DNA from: Halieaceae bacterium
Lineage (GTDB): Bacteria > Pseudomonadota > Gammaproteobacteria > Pseudomonadales > Halieaceae
DNA: 13,720 nucleotides
Direction of reading: 5' to 3'
Assembly: GCA_011523115.1 (NCBI GenBank)
Contig: WTHO01000173.1
Coordinates: 3,468 to 17,187 of the forward strand
In this document: in pieces, positions 1-8,115 of the stretch
Layout: each line of letters begins with the position of its first letter
Numbering within the stretch: position 1 is the stretch's first letter
Notes under the pieces: generated by a model
Database searches by the model: none
Seen by the model: the letters and a program-made list of their open reading frames with translations, nothing else
What the model was told of the DNA's origin: nothing
Translations under genes and position numbers: made by a program

Positions 1-519
1 GCTTGTGGTTCGCTGGCATGGATGACGATGGAGTGGTTACGACATGGAAAGCCCTCCGTATTGGGTATCGTGACAGGGATGGTGGCCGGTTTGGGTACTA
101 TCACCCCCGCCTCGGGTTCAGTGGGCCCAGCGGGCGCCGTGGTGATTGGTCTGTCTGCAGGCGTTATTTGCTACTTTGCAACGATCACGCTGAAAAACCG
201 CTTGGGTGTCGACGACAGCCTGGACGTATTCCCGGTCCATGGCGTGGGAGGCATGCTTGGCCTGTTGATGGCAGGCATTTTTTGCTCACCCTCGCTGGGT
301 CTCTTCAGCGGCAACGGCTTTTCAGACGGTATTGATGGAATAGGCGGTCAGCTGGGGGTTCAGCTAACGGGTATTGTGGCAACGTTTGTCTACACCGCCG
401 TGATCAGCTGGATCTTATTGCGTGTTGTGAATGTCTTTGTGCCACTGAGAGTGGACCAGGAGGATGAGACGGCAGGCCTTGATATCGTGCTGCACGACGA
501 GCGTGGCTACGATCTGTAA
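1..519 (+). CDS. amt: Ammonium transporter (Amt family), C-terminal fragment
   Basis: Inner-membrane channel for ammonium/ammonia uptake. The reading frame is open from base 1, so the gene starts outside the window and only about 172 C-terminal residues are seen. Recognisable Amt signatures in order are W-x-x-HGKPSVLG, a glycine-rich VAGLGTITPASG membrane segment, and DVFPVHGVGGMLG, which carries the second of the two conserved pore histidines. A final transmembrane helix follows, then the conserved cytosolic tail (PLRV..EDETAGLDI..HDERGYDL) to which the PII protein GlnK usually binds. The first pore histidine and the N-terminal half are off the edge. It converges with the exopolyphosphatase gene, with 54 bp between the stop codons. 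No glnB/glnK is visible in this window. Family identity is secure; exact paralogue (amtB or another) cannot be told from a fragment. Confidence 0.93.
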   Translation, partial: ACGSLAWMTMEWLRHGKPSVLGIVTGMVAGLGTITPASGSVGPAGAVVIGLSAGVICYFATITLKNRLGVDDSLDVFPVHGVGGMLGLLMAGIFCSPSLGLFSGNGFSDGIDGIGGQLGVQLTGIVATFVYTAVISWILLRVVNVFVPLRVDQEDETAGLDIVLHDERGYDL

Positions 520-2121: not shown

Positions 2122-3192
2122 TCACGATGATACATAGTGTTTCGGCACGCGCCCGGTAAGCCTCGTCATTAGCTCATAGCCAATGGTGCCAGAGTGAGCC
2201 GCGACCTCATCAACCCTTGGCGCATCGCCCCAGAGCACGACGGGCGCTCCTGGCTCGACTGTGTCGATATCGGTGACGTCGACGGTGATCATATCCATTG
2301 AAACTCTCCCTGCTAGCGGCACGACCTGACCGGAGACCACTACGGGCGTGCCGTCGGCGGCAGCCCAGGGATAGCCGTCGCCATAGCCCACGGGGATCGT
2401 GGCGATTTTGCTGTCTTTCTCCGCCACCCAGCGAGCCCCGTAGCCGACGGCCTCGCCTCGCTTGACGTGCCTCACTGCGAGCACGCGACTACTCAGTTGC
2501 ATCGCAGGTAGCAACTCACTGTCGAGGGGGTCATTCCCTATCCGGCCACCGTACAGTGCGTAACCCACTCGGACCCAGTGGCTGCGCCCGGTGATGCCAT
2601 GGCGAGTCGCTGCGGAATTATGCAGGCTGGCGGTATCGCACAAGTCTGCACAGTGACTATTCCATTGTCGAATCTGGCCTTGCGTTATGTCAGATTCAGG
2701 TGATTCCGCAGAGGCGAGATGCGACATGATTGTCATGTTCTGGATCTGCGCTTCGCCAAGGCATTGCTTGACGTCTGCAAGTTGCGATGGCGGAAATCCC
2801 AGCCGATGCATGCCAGTATCGACTTTAATCCATGCGTGTTTCAGTGGGTTGTCGAGTTTGGTGCACCATTCGAGTTGCTCCGCTTGATGCAGGACGGGCC
2901 AAAGGTCGAGCTTGCTTGATAGAGAGAGTTCGCTCGGCGTATGCGGGCCCTCCAGGACGAGGACAGGAGCAGCAATGCCAGACTCTCGGAGCTCGACGGC
3001 CTCCTCAGTAAAGGCAACCGCAAAAGCGTCGACCGTATCTTCTATGTGGGTGGCGACCCGCGCCGCACCATGGCCATAGGCATTCGCTTTTACGACGGCT
3101 ATGAGTTTTTGTGAGCCGGCACTTTTCTTGAGCGACCGCAGATTAGCATCGATGGCGGACAGGTTGATCTCGATCGAAGTGGATCGGGACAT
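2122..3192 (-). CDS. alr: Alanine racemase
   Basis: PLP-dependent interconversion of L- and D-alanine, supplying D-Ala for peptidoglycan or feeding D-Ala into the aminotransferase encoded just upstream. The product is 356 aa, typical for the family. The PLP lysine lies in VVKANAYGHG (Lys35), inside the N-terminal TIM barrel. Also visible are KVDTGMHRLGF (123-133), HNSAATRHG (191-199), VRVGYALYGG (207-216), the second catalytic base Tyr251 in VGYGARW, PVGYGDGYPW (267-276) and GRVSMDM (295-301). The ATG shares one base with the TGA of the aminotransferase gene (TGATG on the minus strand). There is no good Shine-Dalgarno sequence ahead of it, which suggests translational coupling. Whether this is the biosynthetic (alr) or catabolic (dadX) type cannot be decided by sequence. 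Its operon position next to a D-amino-acid aminotransferase and away from a dadA dehydrogenase argues for a role linked to D-Ala/D-Glu exchange. Confidence 0.95.
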   Translation of the reverse strand: MSRSTSIEINLSAIDANLRSLKKSAGSQKLIAVVKANAYGHGAARVATHIEDTVDAFAVAFTEEAVELRESGIAAPVLVLEGPHTPSELSLSSKLDLWPVLHQAEQLEWCTKLDNPLKHAWIKVDTGMHRLGFPPSQLADVKQCLGEAQIQNMTIMSHLASAESPESDITQGQIRQWNSHCADLCDTASLHNSAATRHGITGRSHWVRVGYALYGGRIGNDPLDSELLPAMQLSSRVLAVRHVKRGEAVGYGARWVAEKDSKIATIPVGYGDGYPWAAADGTPVVVSGQVVPLAGRVSMDMITVDVTDIDTVEPGAPVVLWGDAPRVDEVAAHSGTIGYELMTRLTGRVPKHYVSS

Positions 3193-4052
3193 CAGAAATC
3201 ACTAAAGCGATATTGCTGAAACAAAGACTGCGCCGCTTCCCATCGGGGTCCGGGTACACCTTCGTTGATGGCGACGCCATTCAGTTTGACGACCGGGGCC
3301 AACTCTTTGGTAGATGAGCTTAGCCAGATCTCCTCCGCTTTCAGCACTTCTTCAAGATGCACAGGTCGCGTTTCGATCGTCCAGTCGGTGTAGCGCTGTA
3401 GTAATTCGATGCACTGTCGGCGAGTCACGCCGGGGAGGATCTGATGATCCAGCTCCGGGGTGAGAATGGCGCCGCCTGACACAATAAATACGTTACAGGC
3501 AGCGGCTTCGGTCAGCTCCTCGCGCTCGTTGAAGAGTAAAACTTCCTCAGCGCCGTCCTCGACTGCCTCCATCATATGCAGGACATTACCCAGCAGTGCC
3601 GTGGATTTGATGTGGCAACGCTCCCAGCGTTTGTCTGGCTTGGTGACGGCAGTAAAGCAGCTGGCCGTGTCTGTTGAGCCGTCAGAAGGTTCACTGATGG
3701 GGAACGTATAGGCGAAAACTGTTGGCTGGCAGTGTTCCGGAAAAGCGTGCTGTCGCTTCATGGTTGGCCCACGGGTGATTTGCAGATACACGCCGAGATT
3801 ACCGCCCCCGTTTTTCTGAACGAGGGTTAGCAGCATTTCCAATAAGTCCGCTTCACTGTGCGGTGATGTGAGTGCGATACCGCTCAGGGAATGATTGAGA
3901 CGTTCCAGATGGTACGGCATGGCCACGAGCTGCCCTTCATAGCAGGGTATCACCTCATAAACACCGTCTCCAAAGAGGAAGCCGCGGTCCATCGGTGAAA
4001 TCTTCGCTTCGGATAAAGGGGTAAATGAGCCGTTCAAGTAGGCGATGCTCAT
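3192..4052 (-). CDS. dat: D-amino-acid aminotransferase (D-alanine:2-oxoglutarate type)
   Basis: Fold-type IV PLP aminotransferase that exchanges the amino group between D-Ala and 2-oxoglutarate, giving pyruvate and D-Glu, reversibly. The product is 286 aa, matching Bacillus DAAT. Evidence includes DRGFLFGDGVYEV (22-34), HLERL (48-52), and VYLQITRG followed by an R-x-H pair (Arg100, His102) then FPE. That Arg/His pair sits where Bacillus DAAT keeps its alpha-carboxylate-trapping residues, and it favours D-amino-acid over branched-chain L-amino-acid specificity. The PLP lysine is Lys149 in CHIKSTALLGNV, and Glu182 in LTEAAACNVF contacts the cofactor ring. LPGVTR (207-212) and SSSTKELAPV complete the pattern. 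A strong purine-rich Shine-Dalgarno (GAGGGAG) precedes the ATG. The start overlaps the stop of the DUF4392 gene by 4 nt (ATGA), and the stop shares a base with the alr start. An IlvE or aminodeoxychorismate-lyase identity is possible in this fold but fits less well. Confidence 0.92.
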   Translation of the reverse strand: MSIAYLNGSFTPLSEAKISPMDRGFLFGDGVYEVIPCYEGQLVAMPYHLERLNHSLSGIALTSPHSEADLLEMLLTLVQKNGGGNLGVYLQITRGPTMKRQHAFPEHCQPTVFAYTFPISEPSDGSTDTASCFTAVTKPDKRWERCHIKSTALLGNVLHMMEAVEDGAEEVLLFNEREELTEAAACNVFIVSGGAILTPELDHQILPGVTRRQCIELLQRYTDWTIETRPVHLEEVLKAEEIWLSSSTKELAPVVKLNGVAINEGVPGPRWEAAQSLFQQYRFSDF

Positions 4053-4903
4053 GATGCTTCTCCCTCGGTGAACGCTCGGCGGATGTCCGTCAACAGAAGG
4101 CTCGTTTTCTCGCGGGTAAATCCATCCTCCGTCGGCGTTGCCTCGCGGGTTACGCCGTCGAGGGCGCCCTGACTCACGAGATAGTCAAGGTCAGTTGCGA
4201 ACTCGTCCGACTCTGGGAGGTGATCGCCGGAAAGCCATGTGGTCATGCCGCATAACGCATAGGCACCCCAGTTGGACACGTCAGCGACAATGAGTTCAGA
4301 GCAGGTACTGACTGCCGGCCTGATATTCAGTTTCGATAAGCTCGACAGCACGTTCCCCATACCAATCTCGTTTCCCCCGTCCCCTATCGCTATGGTAGGG
4401 CAGGGAGCGAACACAAGGTAGGGTTCTGCAATGCCGCAGTGTGAAGTGATGTCTTCACCGCTCATGTTGTAGTACCTGCCGTCCGCCGCCATCCCCGGGC
4501 GCTCGATACTGATCACCAGCCCTGGGGGTGCCTCCCGATACAGGGCTTCCGCTGTTTTTGAGACGGTTTCGAAACTCTTGCCCGCAATCGATCTGCACAC
4601 GAATCGATCCTGCAGCGCCCCGGCGATGACGGTATCGGTGATGATGACAGCTTGGTGCCCCATTTTTTCGCACAGGCGATAGAGCGCAAAGGCCCCTGCG
4701 GGACCATCGGTCTCAAAGGTATCATTTACCGGAAATCCAGTGACGATATAGACAGGCCCGGAGCAGTCAAGCAAATACTCTGCGGCACGAAGGAGATAGC
4801 CGGGCTCAAGCGCTTCGCGAATCTCGGCCATGAAGCGATGGTTCTCGCGGATAAGCAGTGTCTCCACGGTACGGGATACGGCAATGGCCTCAGCTTTGCT
4901 CAT
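4049..4903 (-). CDS. DUF4392 protein, D-glutamate cyclase C-terminal-domain-like
   Basis: 284 aa. It resembles the DUF4392 domain that forms the C-terminal part of mammalian mitochondrial D-glutamate cyclase (DGLUCY), the enzyme that turns D-Glu into 5-oxo-D-proline. Visible family signatures are YIVTGFP (52-58), FETDGPAGA (63-71) and IGDGGNEIGMGNV (173-185). There is no signal peptide and no membrane helix. I chose the ATG at 4903-4901 because it overlaps the pxpC stop by 4 nt (ATGA) and has a well placed Shine-Dalgarno (CGAGG, 5-6 nt upstream). An in-frame ATG at 4969 would add 22 non-conserved residues and intrude 70 bp into pxpC. It lies between 5-oxoprolinase and D-amino-acid aminotransferase genes, exactly where a D-Glu to 5-oxoproline step would fit. 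Domain assignment is from motif recall. Whether the stand-alone bacterial protein is catalytic, needs the DUF1445 partner, or does something else is not shown. Confidence 0.82.
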   Translation of the reverse strand: MSKAEAIAVSRTVETLLIRENHRFMAEIREALEPGYLLRAAEYLLDCSGPVYIVTGFPVNDTFETDGPAGAFALYRLCEKMGHQAVIITDTVIAGALQDRFVCRSIAGKSFETVSKTAEALYREAPPGLVISIERPGMAADGRYYNMSGEDITSHCGIAEPYLVFAPCPTIAIGDGGNEIGMGNVLSSLSKLNIRPAVSTCSELIVADVSNWGAYALCGMTTWLSGDHLPESDEFATDLDYLVSQGALDGVTREATPTEDGFTREKTSLLLTDIRRAFTEGEAS

Positions 4904-5826
4904 CGCAGCCTCGTCTCCAGATAGTGTTGTTCCAACCACGCAATGCGATCCGCCTCCTGAGGGGTGCATGGCGCGAATCTGACTCGTTGACCGGGTCTCG
5001 CTTGAGCCAGCCTTCGGCAGTCGCTGCGAATAACCGCCCCGGGTTTTGGGTAGCCGCCGACAGTTTGTCGATCGTTGAGCAGCACGATGGGGTTCCCGTC
5101 GCCCGGTAATTGTATCGCGCCGTAGCAGGTGGCTTCTGAAAGCAGGGAAGTGACTCCGGTATTGACCGGGTCTCCAGACAGTGCCACGCCCATTCGATTC
5201 GCTCTCGAAGTCACTTTGAATTCACTCTCCAGCAACGAGCTCATAGCTTGCTCGGTGAGCAGCTCGTATTGAAAGCCGGGCACGAATCTGAGCATGAGAG
5301 TTGGAGCACTCTCGGGTAAGGGGAGGCTTGCGATTGACGCGATCACGTCGCTATTGGCAGACCCGATGGGCAGTTGATCTCCGTCTCGCAAGTAAGTGCC
5401 GGCAAGACCACCGATGCCCTCCCTGACTGAGGTGCTGCGGCTATCGAAAACGGCCGGTGTGGCGATGCCGCCTGAGACATGGAGATAGCTATAGACTCCA
5501 TGGGAGCGAGCCTTAATGCTGACGCGTTGGCCAGCACCGATTTTAAGCACTTCTGTATCGCAAGCCGGTGCCCCATCGACCCACAGGCTAACCGGTGCTC
5601 CAGTTACTGCGATGAGGCACGACGAGCCGGGTGTCACCTCCGTGTTTGCGTAAGCCATTTCAATGGCCGCTTCGTCCTGAGTGTGTCCGAGCAGATGCTG
5701 ACCGCTGACGAGTGCAGGGTGATCCATGGCGCCGGAGGGAGGCAAGCCCAATTGCAGCGTGCCAATGCGGCCACTGTCCTGCACTGTTGACGCGGCGCCT
5801 GCGCGATTGATGTGCAATACGGTCAT
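4900..5826 (-). CDS. pxpC: 5-oxoprolinase subunit C (KipA family)
   Basis: One of three subunits of the ATP-dependent prokaryotic 5-oxoprolinase that opens 5-oxoproline (pyroglutamate) to glutamate. It corresponds to E. coli YbgK and to KipA, the partner of the sporulation inhibitor KipI in Bacillus. The product is 308 aa, normal for a stand-alone PxpC and much shorter than urea carboxylase, which has a related domain. Family marks are TVQDSGR (14-20), LPPSGAMDHPA (28-38), EAAIEM, ANRMGVAL, and towards the end GAIQLPGDGNPIVLLNDRQT, followed by VGGYPK. Both ends overlap neighbours by 4 nt: its ATG overlaps the pxpB stop and its TGA overlaps the DUF4392 start. No Shine-Dalgarno is seen ahead of the ATG, so translation probably depends on pxpB. 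Confidence 0.94.
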   Translation of the reverse strand: MTVLHINRAGAASTVQDSGRIGTLQLGLPPSGAMDHPALVSGQHLLGHTQDEAAIEMAYANTEVTPGSSCLIAVTGAPVSLWVDGAPACDTEVLKIGAGQRVSIKARSHGVYSYLHVSGGIATPAVFDSRSTSVREGIGGLAGTYLRDGDQLPIGSANSDVIASIASLPLPESAPTLMLRFVPGFQYELLTEQAMSSLLESEFKVTSRANRMGVALSGDPVNTGVTSLLSEATCYGAIQLPGDGNPIVLLNDRQTVGGYPKPGAVIRSDCRRLAQARPGQRVRFAPCTPQEADRIAWLEQHYLETRLR

Positions 5827-6515
5827 ACTGAACCGCCCAAAGCGCGAAATTCGGACTCGCTCACGGGCTCAAAGCGGACGGAGTCACCGATAGTCAGGAG
5901 CGCGGGGGGGGACGCCTTCAGGTTGAATAGCCTGAGTGGGCAACTGCCAATCAATCGCCAGCCGCCCGGTGACGGTCCGGGATAGACTGCGGTTTGTTGA
6001 TCCGCCAGGGCAACCGATCCCGCCGAGACTTCCGATCGAGGTGTCGCCAGTCGCGGCACAGCCAATTTTGGTGAGGTCGTGCCGAGGTAGCAGAATCCCG
6101 GCGCAAATCCCGTAGCGTAGGCAAAATAGGTGGGGTCGCTGTGCAGATCGATAACCGTATCGACGCTGAGCGCGTTCTCCTCTGCGAGCCACTCCAGATC
6201 AGGGGCAACGCTCGGGTGATACCACACCGGTAGCACGACGACGGGTCGCGCGGCGAGTTGCGCCAGAAAAGCCTCATCAGTATCGGCGCCAGCGCTTTCC
6301 TGTAGCCAGGCAGTGGCGCGATCTCGCTCGATATTGTGTGGTTCGAAAAACAAGGTCAGCGTTGTATAACCAACTACGCTATCTATCAGTTCTGTGCCAA
6401 AGCGTTGCCTTGCCGAGTGTTGTATCGAAAGAAGCTTGCTGGTGAGAGCCTCATGCGGCTCTCCACTGAAGACGAGCCTTATTCCGCACTCGCCTGCCGG
6501 ACCGATTTCGAACAC
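5823..6515 (-). CDS. pxpB: 5-oxoprolinase subunit B (KipI family)
   Basis: ATP-dependent 5-oxoprolinase subunit; homologue of E. coli YbgJ and Bacillus KipI, cyclophilin-like at the C-terminal half. The product is 230 aa, the usual length. Visible motifs are ATGFAPGFCYLG (134-145), PRSEVSAGSVALA (159-171) and YPGPSPGGWRLIG (178-190), all typical of the family core, with CPLRLF after them. The start is GTG at 6515-6513, directly abutting the TAG stop of pxpA with no intervening base. The N-terminal sequence from this GTG (MFEIGPAGEC..) matches the family's opening beta strand, and no ATG in frame serves better. It lies in pxpA-pxpB-pxpC order, as in many bacteria. Confidence 0.93.
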   Translation of the reverse strand: MFEIGPAGECGIRLVFSGEPHEALTSKLLSIQHSARQRFGTELIDSVVGYTTLTLFFEPHNIERDRATAWLQESAGADTDEAFLAQLAARPVVVLPVWYHPSVAPDLEWLAEENALSVDTVIDLHSDPTYFAYATGFAPGFCYLGTTSPKLAVPRLATPRSEVSAGSVALADQQTAVYPGPSPGGWRLIGSCPLRLFNLKASPPALLTIGDSVRFEPVSESEFRALGGSV

Positions 6516-7259
6516 CTACTCTAGACCGTCCATCGCCTGGCGGATGGCAGTGATCATTTCTACTGCACCGGGAGTATCGCTGTGGACGCAGAGCGTGTCT
6601 GCGCTCACCGGGATCCGTTTGCCCCGAGGTGTGCGCAGATTGTTTTTCGCGATCGCGATGGCCTGATTGGCGGCGTCGAATGGGTTCAGCAGTGCCCCCG
6701 GTTTCTCTCTGCCAAGCAGCAGGCCTCGACTGGTATAGCCCCTGTCTGCGAACGCTTCATACCGCAGGTTGAGTCCGTGCTCTACAGCCAACTGTTGGGT
6801 TTTACGGTCTCTGGGTGTAGCCAGCACCACCAGTTCAAGATCGGCATGCCAACTCGCGACGGCACTCATGATGTCGTTCAGAATCAGGGAATCAGCCAGC
6901 ATGGCGTGGTACAGCGCACCGTGGGGTTTGACATAGGTCACCCTGGTGCCATGAGCGCGAGCGATACCATCAAGCGCGCCGATCTGGTAATGCACGAGGT
7001 CGACGAGTTCCTGTCCGCTGAGTGCCATGGCCCGTCGCCCGAAGCCTTGCTTGTCGGGGTATGAGACGTGAGCCCCGATTTCGGTGCGATGCCGTTTTGC
7101 TAACTCCACGCAGGCGCGCATAGTGCTGGGGTCGCCCGCATGACCTCCGCAGGCAACATTAGCCGCGTCAATCAGAGGCATGATGTTCCGGTCGTCGCCC
7201 ATCTTCCAAGGGCCAAACCCTTCGCCCAAGTCGCAGTTCAAGGTCAGTTTTCTTGTCAT
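6516..7259 (-). CDS. pxpA: 5-oxoprolinase subunit A (LamB/YcsF family)
   Basis: Third component of the 5-oxoprolinase complex, homologous to E. coli YbgL and Bacillus YcsF. It has a (beta/alpha)-barrel fold of the LamB/YcsF family, not related to maltoporin LamB. The product is 247 aa, the usual length. Signatures: LNCDLGEGFG (7-16), ANVACGGHAGDP (33-44), IGAHVSYPD (61-69) with GFGRR after it, VKPHGALYH in the middle, and FADRGYTSRGLLLGR, then the C-terminal VHSDTPGA. The acidic and histidine residues in the first three motifs are those shared throughout the family. The ATG overlaps the DUF1445 stop by 4 nt (ATGA), with only a weak GAAG ribosome site upstream. Together with pxpB and pxpC the complete three-subunit enzyme is encoded here. 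Confidence 0.95.
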   Translation of the reverse strand: MTRKLTLNCDLGEGFGPWKMGDDRNIMPLIDAANVACGGHAGDPSTMRACVELAKRHRTEIGAHVSYPDKQGFGRRAMALSGQELVDLVHYQIGALDGIARAHGTRVTYVKPHGALYHAMLADSLILNDIMSAVASWHADLELVVLATPRDRKTQQLAVEHGLNLRYEAFADRGYTSRGLLLGREKPGALLNPFDAANQAIAIAKNNLRTPRGKRIPVSADTLCVHSDTPGAVEMITAIRQAMDGLE

Positions 7260-8056
7260 CGATCTTCAGCCAAATCAACGTTTTTCAAATCGGTCACCAG
7301 CATGTGGCCCGGCTCATGAGTCATGGCCAGCGCCGGTTGCGCATTTTCAAGTGCAACCTGTGGTGTGACGCCACAGGCCCAGAACACCGGGACATCATCC
7401 TCGTTCAGGGACACAGGATCTCCAAAATCGGGCTGGCTCAGATCTTCTATTCCAAGCTGACTGGCATCGCCGAAATGGATTGGGGCACCGTGCACGGACG
7501 GGTAGCGGGAACAAATTTGAATGGCTTCGATCGCCTGTGCCGGAGGCATGGGGCGCATGCTCACCACCATTTTAGCCGTGAAAATACCGGCGGGTGTGCA
7601 GTCGAGGTTGGTGCGGAACATGGGGACATTCACGCCCTCGCTAATATTGCGGACTTCAATGCCCGCGTTTAACAGCGCCTCCTCAAAAGAAAATGAGCAA
7701 CCAAGCGCAAAAGCCACAAAGTCATCGCGCCACAGCTCAGCAATATGCAAGCGGTGCTCGGCGAGCGCGCCTTTCTGCCATATACGATAGCGTGGAATGT
7801 CGTAACGAATATCGATGTTGGTTCCCAGCGCCGGCAGACTGGGGTCCCCCGGTGTCGGGCTGGTGGCAAGAAGAGGGCAAGGTTTTGGGTTCAGCCGACA
7901 AAATTCCTCGAAACTCTTCGCGATATCCGCGGGCAAAATGACGATATTGCATTGCACGTACCCACGAGCGGCACCGGACGTGGGTTCCGTGAAGGCAGAC
8001 GTTCGGCACAGCGCTCTAACTTGCTCTCCGGACATCGACTCTGCTACGGCTACCAT
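7256..8056 (-). CDS. DUF1445/YcsI family protein (D-glutamate cyclase N-terminal-domain-like, 'putative hydro-lyase')
   Basis: 266 aa from the chosen start. Belongs to the DUF1445/YcsI family, often labelled putative hydro-lyase, whose mammalian member forms the N-terminal part of D-glutamate cyclase (DGLUCY). Motifs: TSGAARGYVQCN (26-37), FCRLNPKPCPLL (52-63), GCSFSFE (119-125), VPMFRTN (144-150), FWACGVTPQ (225-233) and THEPGHMLVTD (246-256), all family hallmarks. This is the first gene of the operon, followed by pxpA with a 4-nt overlap, the same neighbourhood as Bacillus ycsI-ycsF-kipIA. The start is uncertain. TTG at 8086 would lie upstream of the likely -10 box. ATG at 8056 has a GAG six bases ahead. 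ATG at 8035 gives 259 aa and matches the usual family N-terminus. I give 8056; 8035 is equally possible. Biochemical role in bacteria is inferred, not shown by sequence. Confidence 0.88.
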   Translation of the reverse strand: MVAVAESMSGEQVRALCRTSAFTEPTSGAARGYVQCNIVILPADIAKSFEEFCRLNPKPCPLLATSPTPGDPSLPALGTNIDIRYDIPRYRIWQKGALAEHRLHIAELWRDDFVAFALGCSFSFEEALLNAGIEVRNISEGVNVPMFRTNLDCTPAGIFTAKMVVSMRPMPPAQAIEAIQICSRYPSVHGAPIHFGDASQLGIEDLSQPDFGDPVSLNEDDVPVFWACGVTPQVALENAQPALAMTHEPGHMLVTDLKNVDLAEDR

Positions 8057-8070
8057 CTTGGTCTCGAGCT

Positions 8071-8099
8071 TGTATAGTGAGGTCAAATCATACGCTCAA
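8071..8099 (-). promoter_or_regulatory. Candidate sigma70 promoter for the D-amino-acid/5-oxoproline operon
   Basis: On the minus strand TTGAGC (8099-8094) and TATACA (8076-8071) are separated by exactly 17 bases. Each hexamer matches the consensus at four of six positions. Initiation would fall near 8064, just before the ATG candidates of the DUF1445 gene. It lies in the short gap shared with the divergent acyl-CoA synthetase gene, and no other good pair is seen there on this strand. Unproven. Confidence 0.45.
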
Positions 8100-8102
8100 T
8101 AA

Positions 8103-8110
8103 AGAGAGAG
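8103..8110 (+). promoter_or_regulatory. Ribosome binding site fixing the acyl-CoA synthetase start
   Basis: A purine run (AGAGAGAG) ends 5 bases before the ATG at 8116. It supports that codon over the upstream in-frame GTG at 8077, which has no such site and would add 13 non-conserved residues. Confidence 0.6.
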
Positions 8111-8115
8111 ACGCT

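What the first reader, a model, noticed from the sequence alone, without database searches (positions are those of the whole stretch)
2122..8056. Operon linking alanine racemase, D-amino-acid aminotransferase, D-glutamate-cyclase-like proteins and 5-oxoprolinase
Seven genes are packed with 4-nt ATGA overlaps (7256, 5823, 4900, 4049), an exact abutment (6515/6516) and a 1-nt overlap (3192), in the order DUF1445, pxpA, pxpB, pxpC, DUF4392, dat, alr. Known chemistry allows a chain from L-Ala to D-Ala, then D-Glu, then 5-oxo-D-proline, then glutamate. pxpABC with YcsI-type genes is common. Their tight joining to dat, alr and a DUF4392 gene makes a plausible complete D-amino-acid salvage or D-glutamate catabolic route that I do not recall described as a unit. 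The pathway direction and physiological purpose (peptidoglycan recycling, D-Glu removal, or growth on D-amino acids) are inference.
Basis: partly seen in the sequence, partly recalled or inferred. Interest (0 to 1): 0.8.

Follow-up and report, generated by a model that had tools for sequence, protein, structure and literature searches.

The report
Cell-wall D-amino-acid operon with D-glutamate disposal
Marine bacteria of one family carry a conserved seven-gene operon that probably makes the D-alanine and D-glutamate needed for their cell walls and, next to it, genes that look able to dispose of surplus D-glutamate, a pairing that makes the role of the little-understood D-glutamate cyclase family directly testable.

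Summary
In detail: seven minus-strand genes at 2122-8056, order DUF1445, pxpA, pxpB, pxpC, DUF4392, dat, alr, with the stated junctions. The linkage is conserved: of 65 related loci with enough flank, 47 have all seven collinear, 13 lack only alr, 5 differ.

In this family glutamate racemase MurI passes its cut-off in 1 of 140 genomes, MurD has the D-Glu-type residues in 10 of 10 checked, a strong Dat match exists in 129 of 140, and the operon's Alr is the only alanine racemase over cut-off in 15 of 15. So dat and alr look like suppliers of D-Glu and D-Ala for peptidoglycan. The five upstream genes are separable: one clade of the window's genus lacks them, yet all 14 of its fetched loci keep dat-alr. 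Most likely DUF1445 plus DUF4392 (the two domains of mammalian D-glutamate cyclase) drain surplus D-Glu to 5-oxoproline and PxpABC reopens it. That drain, and PxpABC's stereochemistry, are inference. Searches of the held library did not show this unit.

The parts
7256..8056 (-). DUF1445 / YcsI-type protein (PF07286 D-Glu_cyclase), 266 aa; homologue of the first domain of mammalian D-glutamate cyclase
   Evidence: PF07286 220.6 bits; NF003969 382.9 vs cut-off 324, named 'putative hydro-lyase'; solved relatives 2pif, 3db9
6516..7259 (-). pxpA, LamB/YcsF family 5-oxoprolinase subunit, 247 aa
   Evidence: PF03746 291.6 bits; NF003816 304.4 vs cut-off 213; solved relative 2xu2 PA4511
5823..6515 (-). 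pxpB, 230 aa, GTG start
   Evidence: PF02682 195.3 bits; TIGR00370 140.2, just under its cut-off 145.55
4900..5826 (-). pxpC, 308 aa
   Evidence: PF02626 261.8 bits; TIGR00724 239.8 over 230.2; PxpC equivalog NF045499 221.7, under its cut-off 500
4049..4903 (-). DUF4392 protein (PF14336 GLUCM-like_C), 284 aa from the ATG at 4903; homologue of the latter domain of mammalian D-glutamate cyclase and of TON_0340
   Evidence: PF14336 201.5 bits; solved relatives 5gkx, 4dwz, 4fc5; acidic positions E86, D88, E156, D197, E201 (numbered on the 306-aa ORF) near-invariant in 114 relatives (108 distinct rows with the query)
3192..4052 (-). dat, fold-type IV D-amino-acid transaminase, 286 aa
   Evidence: PF01063; best solved relatives are D-amino-acid aminotransferases 4pbc, 4m0j, 9pxs, 3daa, 1daa; R100/H102 in all 122 aligned rows (115 distinct), 14 block-less loci included
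2122..3192 (-). alr, alanine racemase, 356 aa
   Evidence: TIGR00492 341.9 vs cut-off 168; only match over cut-off in the genome, which is 79% complete
8057..8115 (.). 59-bp gap between divergent DUF1445 and acyl-CoA-ligase genes; the operon's promoter probably lies here or inside the ligase gene
   Evidence: letters; the consensus scan finds no promoter-like site there and no excess of sites in the region

Best explanation
The operon is the cell's supply line for the two D-amino acids of peptidoglycan, joined to a drain for one of them. Alr makes D-Ala from L-Ala. Dat uses D-Ala and 2-oxoglutarate to make D-Glu, standing in for the absent MurI. Both feed Ddl and MurD. The DUF1445 and DUF4392 proteins together act like mammalian D-glutamate cyclase and turn surplus D-Glu into 5-oxoproline, and PxpABC, from the same operon, reopens 5-oxoproline to glutamate with ATP. 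Shown here by sequence: gene content, conservation, MurI absence, D-Glu-type MurD, single Alr, separability of the five-gene block. Inferred: co-transcription, that Dat is the D-Glu source (my estimate 0.85), that the DUF pair is a D-Glu cyclase (0.65), that PxpABC handles its product (0.35), and that the purpose is to cap the D-Glu pool. A possible reason, recalled and not from a call: MurI of E. coli is gated by a murein precursor, while a Dat-made pool has no such gate.
For: MurI (TIGR00067) over cut-off in 1 of 140 family genomes (G138), no match in the window's own; 8 of 14 control genomes pass the cut-off. MurD over cut-off in 10 of 11, with Asp182/Lys348 of E. coli MurD rather than the Glu/Arg of MurD2 in 10 of 10. 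Dat: best match >=142 bits in 129 of 140, the other 11 at <=104; by my count 77 of 78 genomes of >=90% completeness and <=5% contamination have it. A single Alr over cut-off in 15 of 15, by coordinates always beside dat. Block-less clade: 14 of 14 fetched loci keep dat-alr-ppx with the five genes gone, and the acyl-CoA ligase is next to dat in 13, the contig ending first in L147; one clade, support 1.0. DUF4392 and DUF1445 occur in 114 and 111 of 140 family genomes with only 5 mismatched genomes: G003, G009, G138 and G008 at contig ends, G121 probably. 25 of 26 DUF4392-bearing genomes that I judged to lie outside the family lack MurI over cut-off, against 253 of 370 in the class, Fisher p 0.0014. 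The mouse protein with both domains makes 5-oxo-D-proline from D-Glu (PMC5339696, abstract and passages).
Against: MurI is missing from about two thirds of the sampled class anyway, so its absence does not explain the cyclase block, which is rare: 2 of 369 other class genomes. 11 of 140 genomes show no strong Dat match, one of them 94% complete (G083), and five carry a second Dat-like gene at 222-267 bits. The 26 outside genomes are of unstated completeness, 18 of them have a MurI-family match at E <= 0.001, 17 only below the cut-off, and they are not independent. DUF1445 is not always in the operon: in G048 and G056 it lies about 0.24 and 1.04 Mb away on the same contig, and L056 has none. 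Three loci (L047, L068, L073) carry the block without dat beside it. No activity of a bacterial DUF1445 or DUF4392 protein on D-Glu showed up in the listings; TON_0340 was reported as a weak Mn phosphatase. Dat falls short of the curated DAAT cut-offs (216.5 vs 277.45). If PxpABC opened 5-oxo-D-proline to D-Glu, the cycle would be futile.
Confidence: 0.55

Rival explanations
1. Catabolic salvage: the operon takes D-Ala and D-Glu released from peptidoglycan or from outside and burns them to pyruvate, 2-oxoglutarate and glutamate for carbon and nitrogen.
For: Dat and Alr reactions are reversible (recalled); cyclase and 5-oxoprolinase would run towards glutamate; a catabolic role of D-Glu exists in another bacterium (PMC6131576, start of abstract). 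A GntP-family permease lies beyond the acyl-CoA ligase in block-less loci (L121 scanned; similar ORFs in L122-L124), and an ammonium-transporter gene lies beyond ppx in the window, but neither is in the operon.
Against: Dat and Alr appear to be the only enzymes of their kind in most family genomes and MurI is absent, so they can hardly be merely catabolic; dat-alr stay when the rest is lost. A D-amino-acid dehydrogenase was not searched for.
Confidence: 0.17
2. Two neighbouring units with no shared metabolite: DUF1445-pxpABC-DUF4392 is a 5-oxo-L-proline clean-up module, and it merely shares a transcript with an essential dat-alr pair.
For: The block is cleanly separable; the block-less clade has a different pxpABC cluster elsewhere in 4 of 4 genomes looked at, with an Nramp gene in front (Pfam for L181 and L185; similar ORFs in L182 and L187), so 5-oxoprolinase is kept while the cyclase pair is not; DUF1445 sits with pxpABC in Bacillus subtilis, which also rings for the MurI family.
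Against: DUF4392 has dat within 1.3 kb in 71 of 75 loci with >=1.2 kb downstream, also in genera outside Halieaceae and where alr is absent; two independent D-Glu-related families meeting by chance is unlikely.
Confidence: 0.2
3. D-Glu for the wall comes from the MurD2/MurL epimerase route, leaving Dat free for catabolism.
For: MurI-less bacteria with that route exist in Gammaproteobacteria (PMC8788868, parts 1 and 2 of 3 seen).
Against: 10 of 10 MurD proteins have Asp182 and Lys348 as in E. coli MurD, not Glu and Arg. This is supportive, not decisive: changing the two MurD2 residues switched MurD2 to D-Glu, but the reverse change in E. coli MurD did not work, and S. mutans MurD has the Arg. 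No direct MurL search was possible.
Confidence: 0.03
4. DUF4392 is a manganese-dependent phosphatase, as proposed for TON_0340, acting on an unknown small substrate.
For: Homology to 5gkx/4dwz, conserved acidic positions, measured Mn-dependent AMP hydrolysis (PMC5132392 passages).
Against: Activity was called very low by its authors; the mouse protein with this domain turns D-Glu into 5-oxo-D-proline and D-Glu builds up in its knock-out.
Confidence: 0.05

Closest known systems
Mammalian mitochondrial D-glutamate cyclase (DGLUCY, 9030617O03Rik/C14orf159)
   Same: Same two domains, DUF1445 and DUF4392
   Different: Here two separate genes, with pxpABC between them and linked to D-Glu synthesis; activity untested. 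A survey of split homologues in gut microbes lists the human protein with the numbers 0 and 6 (PMC11580864, table passage; column heads not seen, taken as full-length and split)
Prokaryotic 5-oxoprolinase PxpABC with YcsI and YcsG (Bacillus subtilis ycs-kip operon)
   Same: pxpA, pxpB, pxpC and a ycsI (DUF1445) gene together (PMC10448178 passages; PF07286 rings in B. subtilis)
   Different: No Nramp gene here; DUF4392, dat and alr added
D-amino-acid transaminase (4pbc, 4m0j, 1daa)
   Same: Best solved relatives; R-x-H kept in 122 of 122 rows
   Different: Sits in a cyclase/oxoprolinase operon; below the curated DAAT score cut-offs
MurI-free D-Glu supply by D-amino-acid transaminase
   Same: Known as a principle (stated in PMC8788868 and PMC5808125)
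   Different: Here in one operon with alr and with a putative D-Glu drain
MurD2/MurL pathway of Xanthomonas
   Same: MurI absent
   Different: MurD residues are of the D-Glu type

Membership tests
D-glutamate cyclase (DGLUCY type) | Both domains PF07286 and PF14336 present | tested here: met
   220.6 and 201.5 bits, over gathering scores 25 and 27.9, as separate genes
D-glutamate cyclase (DGLUCY type) | Conserved acidic metal pocket of DUF4392 | tested here: inconclusive
   ETDGP, ADGRYY and GDGGNEIGMG stretches shared with TON_0340 and acidic columns near-invariant; the six metal ligands themselves were not mapped from the structure
D-glutamate cyclase (DGLUCY type) | Converts D-Glu to 5-oxo-D-proline | not testable with these tools
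   needs enzyme assay
5-oxoprolinase PxpABC | All three subunits with curated scores | tested here: inconclusive
   PxpA over cut-off; PxpB 140.2 vs 145.55 and PxpC equivalog 221.7 vs 500 under cut-off; TIGR00724 domain over cut-off
5-oxoprolinase PxpABC | Activity on 5-oxoproline, and on which isomer | not testable with these tools
   search for '5-oxo-D-proline' with 'oxoprolinase' in the held library: 0 papers
D-amino-acid transaminase | Curated DAAT score (TIGR01121, NF005209) | tested here: not met
   216.5 vs 277.45 and 236.2 vs 320; these are nevertheless the two best-scoring models, and the best-scoring solved relatives are DAATs
D-amino-acid transaminase | R-x-H carboxylate trap (role recalled) | tested here: met
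   R100/H102 in 122 of 122 rows, 115 distinct, aligned to R-x-H of 4pbc, 9pxs and 3daa
Alanine racemase | TIGR00492 over cut-off | tested here: met
   341.9 vs 168
MurD2/MurL pathway | MurD2 residues Glu and Arg at E. coli MurD positions 182 and 348 | tested here: not met
   Asp and Lys in 10 of 10 relatives; the window genome's own murD was not found over cut-off, probably in an assembly gap
MurD2/MurL pathway | MurL homologue | not tested
   no profile or sequence at hand
MurI-dependent D-Glu supply | MurI over TIGR00067 cut-off | tested here: not met
   no match in G000; not over cut-off in 139 of 140 family genomes, G000 included

The most novel reading that the evidence does not exclude
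The five-gene block is an ATP-driven glutamate stereo-inversion route: DUF1445/DUF4392 turn D-Glu into 5-oxoproline with loss of the D configuration (DUF4392 acting as a 5-oxoproline racemase or epimerase, or the pair releasing the L-lactam), and PxpABC then yields L-Glu. Together with Dat and Alr this would be a MurI-free, two-way D/L-glutamate circuit, and would suggest what the domain does in its other hosts, human cells included.
Probability: 0.12. Interest if true: 0.8.

Novelty: new variant of a known kind. Interest (0 to 1): 0.5.

Why it matters
D-glutamate cyclase is conserved to man but its physiological setting is poorly understood, and its domains have been given conflicting functions (D-Glu cyclase, Mn phosphatase). 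Here both domains stand, in most genomes of a bacterial family, in one operon with what look like the only D-Glu-making and D-Ala-making enzymes. That is independent genomic evidence that D-Glu is the bacterial substrate and that the two domains work as a pair. It also names a group of marine bacteria in which D-Glu supply appears to depend on Dat, with natural block-plus and block-minus relatives for testing.

Tried and rejected
MurL/MurD2 route: considered and judged unlikely on MurD residues; a direct MurL search failed because the Pfam accession that I recalled is not in the library. In one search my MurD numbering was off by one (initiator Met); corrected.

G111 (L149) looked like a decaying block with an intact dat (split DUF4392, DUF1445, pxpA and pxpC), but ppx and the acyl-CoA ligase are also frame-split there, so I take it for sequencing error and do not count it.

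PF02626 in 78 of 78 good family genomes is not proof of a universal 5-oxoprolinase: the family also picks urea-carboxylase-sized proteins (907-1239 aa), so I use only the 4 inspected block-less loci.

G400 and G478, the two class genomes with DUF4392, are one genus, and G478 appears to be the same genome as G156 (same MurI-like hit coordinates); so the 27-of-28 Fisher test double counts and I use 25 of 26 only.

Some genomes were fetched twice, once by name and once by handle, so the rows are not all distinct (54 of 59 and 115 of 122 for dat).

Promoter/terminator consensus scan: nothing above shuffled expectation. Acyl-CoA thioesterase, acyl-CoA ligase, patatin and ppx neighbours: judged unrelated.

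Not done: structure prediction, fold search, homologous-protein search, RNA-family scan; search for D-amino-acid dehydrogenase; search for dat elsewhere in the L047, L068 and L073 genomes.
Full report
What is there. The seven genes lie on the minus strand exactly as reported, with four ATGA overlaps, one abutment and one 1-nt overlap. Pfam now calls DUF1445 'D-Glu_cyclase' and DUF4392 'GLUCM-like_C'. DUF4392 most likely starts at the ATG at 4903, so its protein has 284 aa. The divergent acyl-CoA-ligase gene has an ATG 59 bp upstream of DUF1445. The window lies on contig C48 of a 2.07-Mb draft genome, 79% complete. Its family is most likely Halieaceae and its genus near Luminiphilus: contig lengths of G112, G059 and G013 equal those of L. 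syltensis NOR5-1B, HTCC2080 and NOR5-3.

Is the linkage real. One genome scan with the window's DUF4392 gave 80 loci, the best of 223 confirmed stretches. They were searched with the window's proteins (hits under 50 bits dropped), and one search counts the order. Of 65 loci with enough flank, 47 have all seven genes collinear on one strand, 13 have six without alr, and 5 differ: L047, L068 and L073 have no dat nearby, L056 has no DUF1445 hit, L075 is rearranged. Fifteen of the 80 were too short to count. Dat lies within 1.3 kb of DUF4392 in 71 of the 75 loci with at least 1.2 kb downstream. In five loci (L042, L050, L057, L067, L076) a LysR-type regulator gene lies between the two: Pfam for four, by similarity of letters for L057. 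In the family, DUF4392 is found in 27 of 28 genera. In the window's genus 27 of 27 further block-bearing loci fetched besides G112 have the full order; G111 is set aside as error-ridden, and G074, G082, G097, G105 and G106 were not fetched. DUF1445 is the loosest member: in G048 and G056 it lies far from DUF4392 on the same contig.

What dat and alr are for. Three genome searches bear on this. MurI passes its cut-off in 1 of 140 family genomes (G138), while 8 of 14 controls pass it; 9 more family genomes have only weak matches of 22-42 bits. Dat is found at >=142 bits in 129 of 140 genomes. The other 11 have a best match of at most 104 bits, which is paralogue level or, in G082, a short piece: G008, G064, G069, G076, G082, G083, G090, G091, G094, G107, G123. 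Five genomes (G032, G044, G052, G066, G096) have a second Dat-like gene at 222-267 bits. The operon's Alr is the only protein over the alanine-racemase cut-off in 15 of 15 genomes from 7 genera. The known MurI-free alternative, MurD2 plus MurL, is unlikely: MurD from 10 genomes has the Asp182 and Lys348 of E. coli MurD, the positions at which MurD2 differs and whose change switched MurD2 to D-Glu (which also reports that the reverse change in E. coli MurD failed). The window genome's own MurD was not found over cut-off; its contigs break between murE-like and ftsW-like ORFs (read by eye), so an assembly gap is likely. So D-Glu for the wall most likely comes from D-Ala by Dat, and D-Ala from Alr. 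Dat scores below the curated DAAT cut-offs, but its best solved relatives are D-amino-acid transaminases and R100/H102 are kept in 122 of 122 rows, 115 of them distinct.

What the other five genes are for. They are separable. Of 57 genomes of the window's genus, 22 lack DUF4392. In the 14 of these with a strong Dat match, dat-alr sits beside ppx, and in 13 also beside the acyl-CoA ligase (L147 ends first), with the five genes absent from the place. These 14 form one clade with support 1.0 nested among block-bearing loci (rooted on other genera of the family), so this is one loss, not fourteen. The other 8 of the 22 showed no strong Dat; their completeness is 54-94%. Four block-less genomes were looked at for a replacement, and all four have a diverged pxpABC cluster elsewhere with an Nramp gene in front (Pfam for two; similar ORFs in the other two). 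So 5-oxoprolinase seems kept while the DUF pair is not. In another genus (L115, L116, L179) pxpB and pxpC are not in the operon while DUF1445, pxpA, DUF4392, dat and alr stay. PF02626 and PF02682 homologues lie elsewhere there, a few kb apart and without pxpA beside them (Pfam for L183).

DUF1445 and DUF4392 travel together: 111 and 114 of 140 family genomes, with five mismatches (G003, G009, G121, G138, G008), four of them at contig ends and G121 probably so (contig lengths, neighbour positions). In mouse the two domains form one protein whose loss raises D-Glu and which makes 5-oxo-D-proline from D-Glu (PMC5339696, abstract and passages). A rival claim for the archaeal DUF4392 protein is a weak Mn phosphatase (PMC5132392, passages).

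How specific is the tie to MurI loss. I chose 26 of the 80 loci that I judged, from record titles and gene content, to lie outside the family; in 25 of their 26 genomes MurI does not pass its cut-off, 17 of these 25 having a weak match. The exception is G140, reached through Thalassotalea locus L018. Kinship and completeness of these genomes are not told by the tool. But 253 of 370 class genomes drawn at >=90% completeness also lack it over cut-off (the draw includes G000 at 79%), so the excess is modest (Fisher p 0.0014) and the 26 are not independent. DUF4392 itself is rare: 2 of 369 other class genomes, though it is in 114 of 140 of this family. MurI absence is thus a setting in which the block occurs, not a sufficient reason for it.

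Best reading. One operon supplies D-Ala and D-Glu for murein and carries a drain for surplus D-Glu. The supply half is well supported, the cyclase half rests on homology plus linkage, and the fate of the lactam is open. If PxpABC is strict for the L-lactam, the D-lactam would need racemising. If it takes the D-lactam, D-Glu would be regenerated at the cost of ATP. This unsolved point is the most interesting part and is simple to test.

Literature. Held-library searches: 'D-glutamate cyclase' with '5-oxoprolinase' (one work, a survey of human proteins with gut-microbe homologues whose table lists both), DUF4392/DUF1445 (6 papers), 5-oxoprolinase/pxpA/YcsI (19 papers), dat/oxoprolinase/alr/operon (none), D-glutamate cyclase with bacteria (10 papers, 9 listed), MurL (20 of 69 listed), 5-oxo-D-proline with oxoprolinase (none), cyclase synonyms (40 of 116 listed), MurI with DAAT in Gammaproteobacteria (the two MurL reviews), and 5-oxoprolinase with alanine racemase and D-glutamate (none). 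I saw listings and passages, and of PMC8788868 parts 1 and 2 of 3. The 2017 PxpABC discovery paper is not held. So 'not described as a unit' holds only for what these searches showed.

Noticed in passing
class-level survey: MurI passes its cut-off in only 117 of 370 genomes drawn evenly from the class at >=90% completeness, so a MurI-free D-Glu supply looks like the commoner state in this sample.
   Followed up: partly
L115:4214-8477, L116:3553-7816, L179:2460-6717: One sister genus keeps DUF1445-pxpA-DUF4392-dat-alr but has no pxpB or pxpC in the operon; diverged homologues of both lie elsewhere (L183, L184, L186), apart from each other and without pxpA.
   Followed up: partly
L189:3882-4739, L190 around 3133-3978, L191 around 4658-5488, L192:4304-5149, L193:2586-3269: A second Dat-like gene (43-46% identical to the window's) in five family genomes; beside it are amidohydrolase genes in L189 and L193 (Pfam) and membrane-protein-like ORFs without a Pfam match in L189 and L191, so a separate catabolic enzyme is possible.
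   Followed up: partly
L067:10384-11301; also L042, L050, L057, L076: LysR-type regulator between DUF4392 and dat in Marinobacterium- and Oceanospirillaceae-like genomes, a candidate regulator responding to a D-amino acid or 5-oxoproline.
   Followed up: partly
L181:2705-6340: Nramp-pxpA-pxpB-pxpC cluster in the block-less clade; the Nramp protein YcsG of the similar Bacillus operon has been reported as a Mn importer, and an archaeal DUF4392 protein binds Mn.
   Followed up: no
L121:7787-9148: GntP-family permease beyond the acyl-CoA ligase in the block-less locus (Pfam); similar ORFs in L122-L124.
   Followed up: no
L149: Frame-split genes (ppx, acyl-CoA ligase, pxpA, pxpC, DUF4392, DUF1445), best explained by assembly indels in this genome.
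   Followed up: yes
window 22-519 (+): C-terminal part of an Amt ammonium transporter (PF00909, 156 bits); a similar ORF follows ppx in block-less relatives L121 and L122.
   Followed up: partly
G036: A second DUF4392 match (162 bits) on another contig of one family genome.
   Followed up: no
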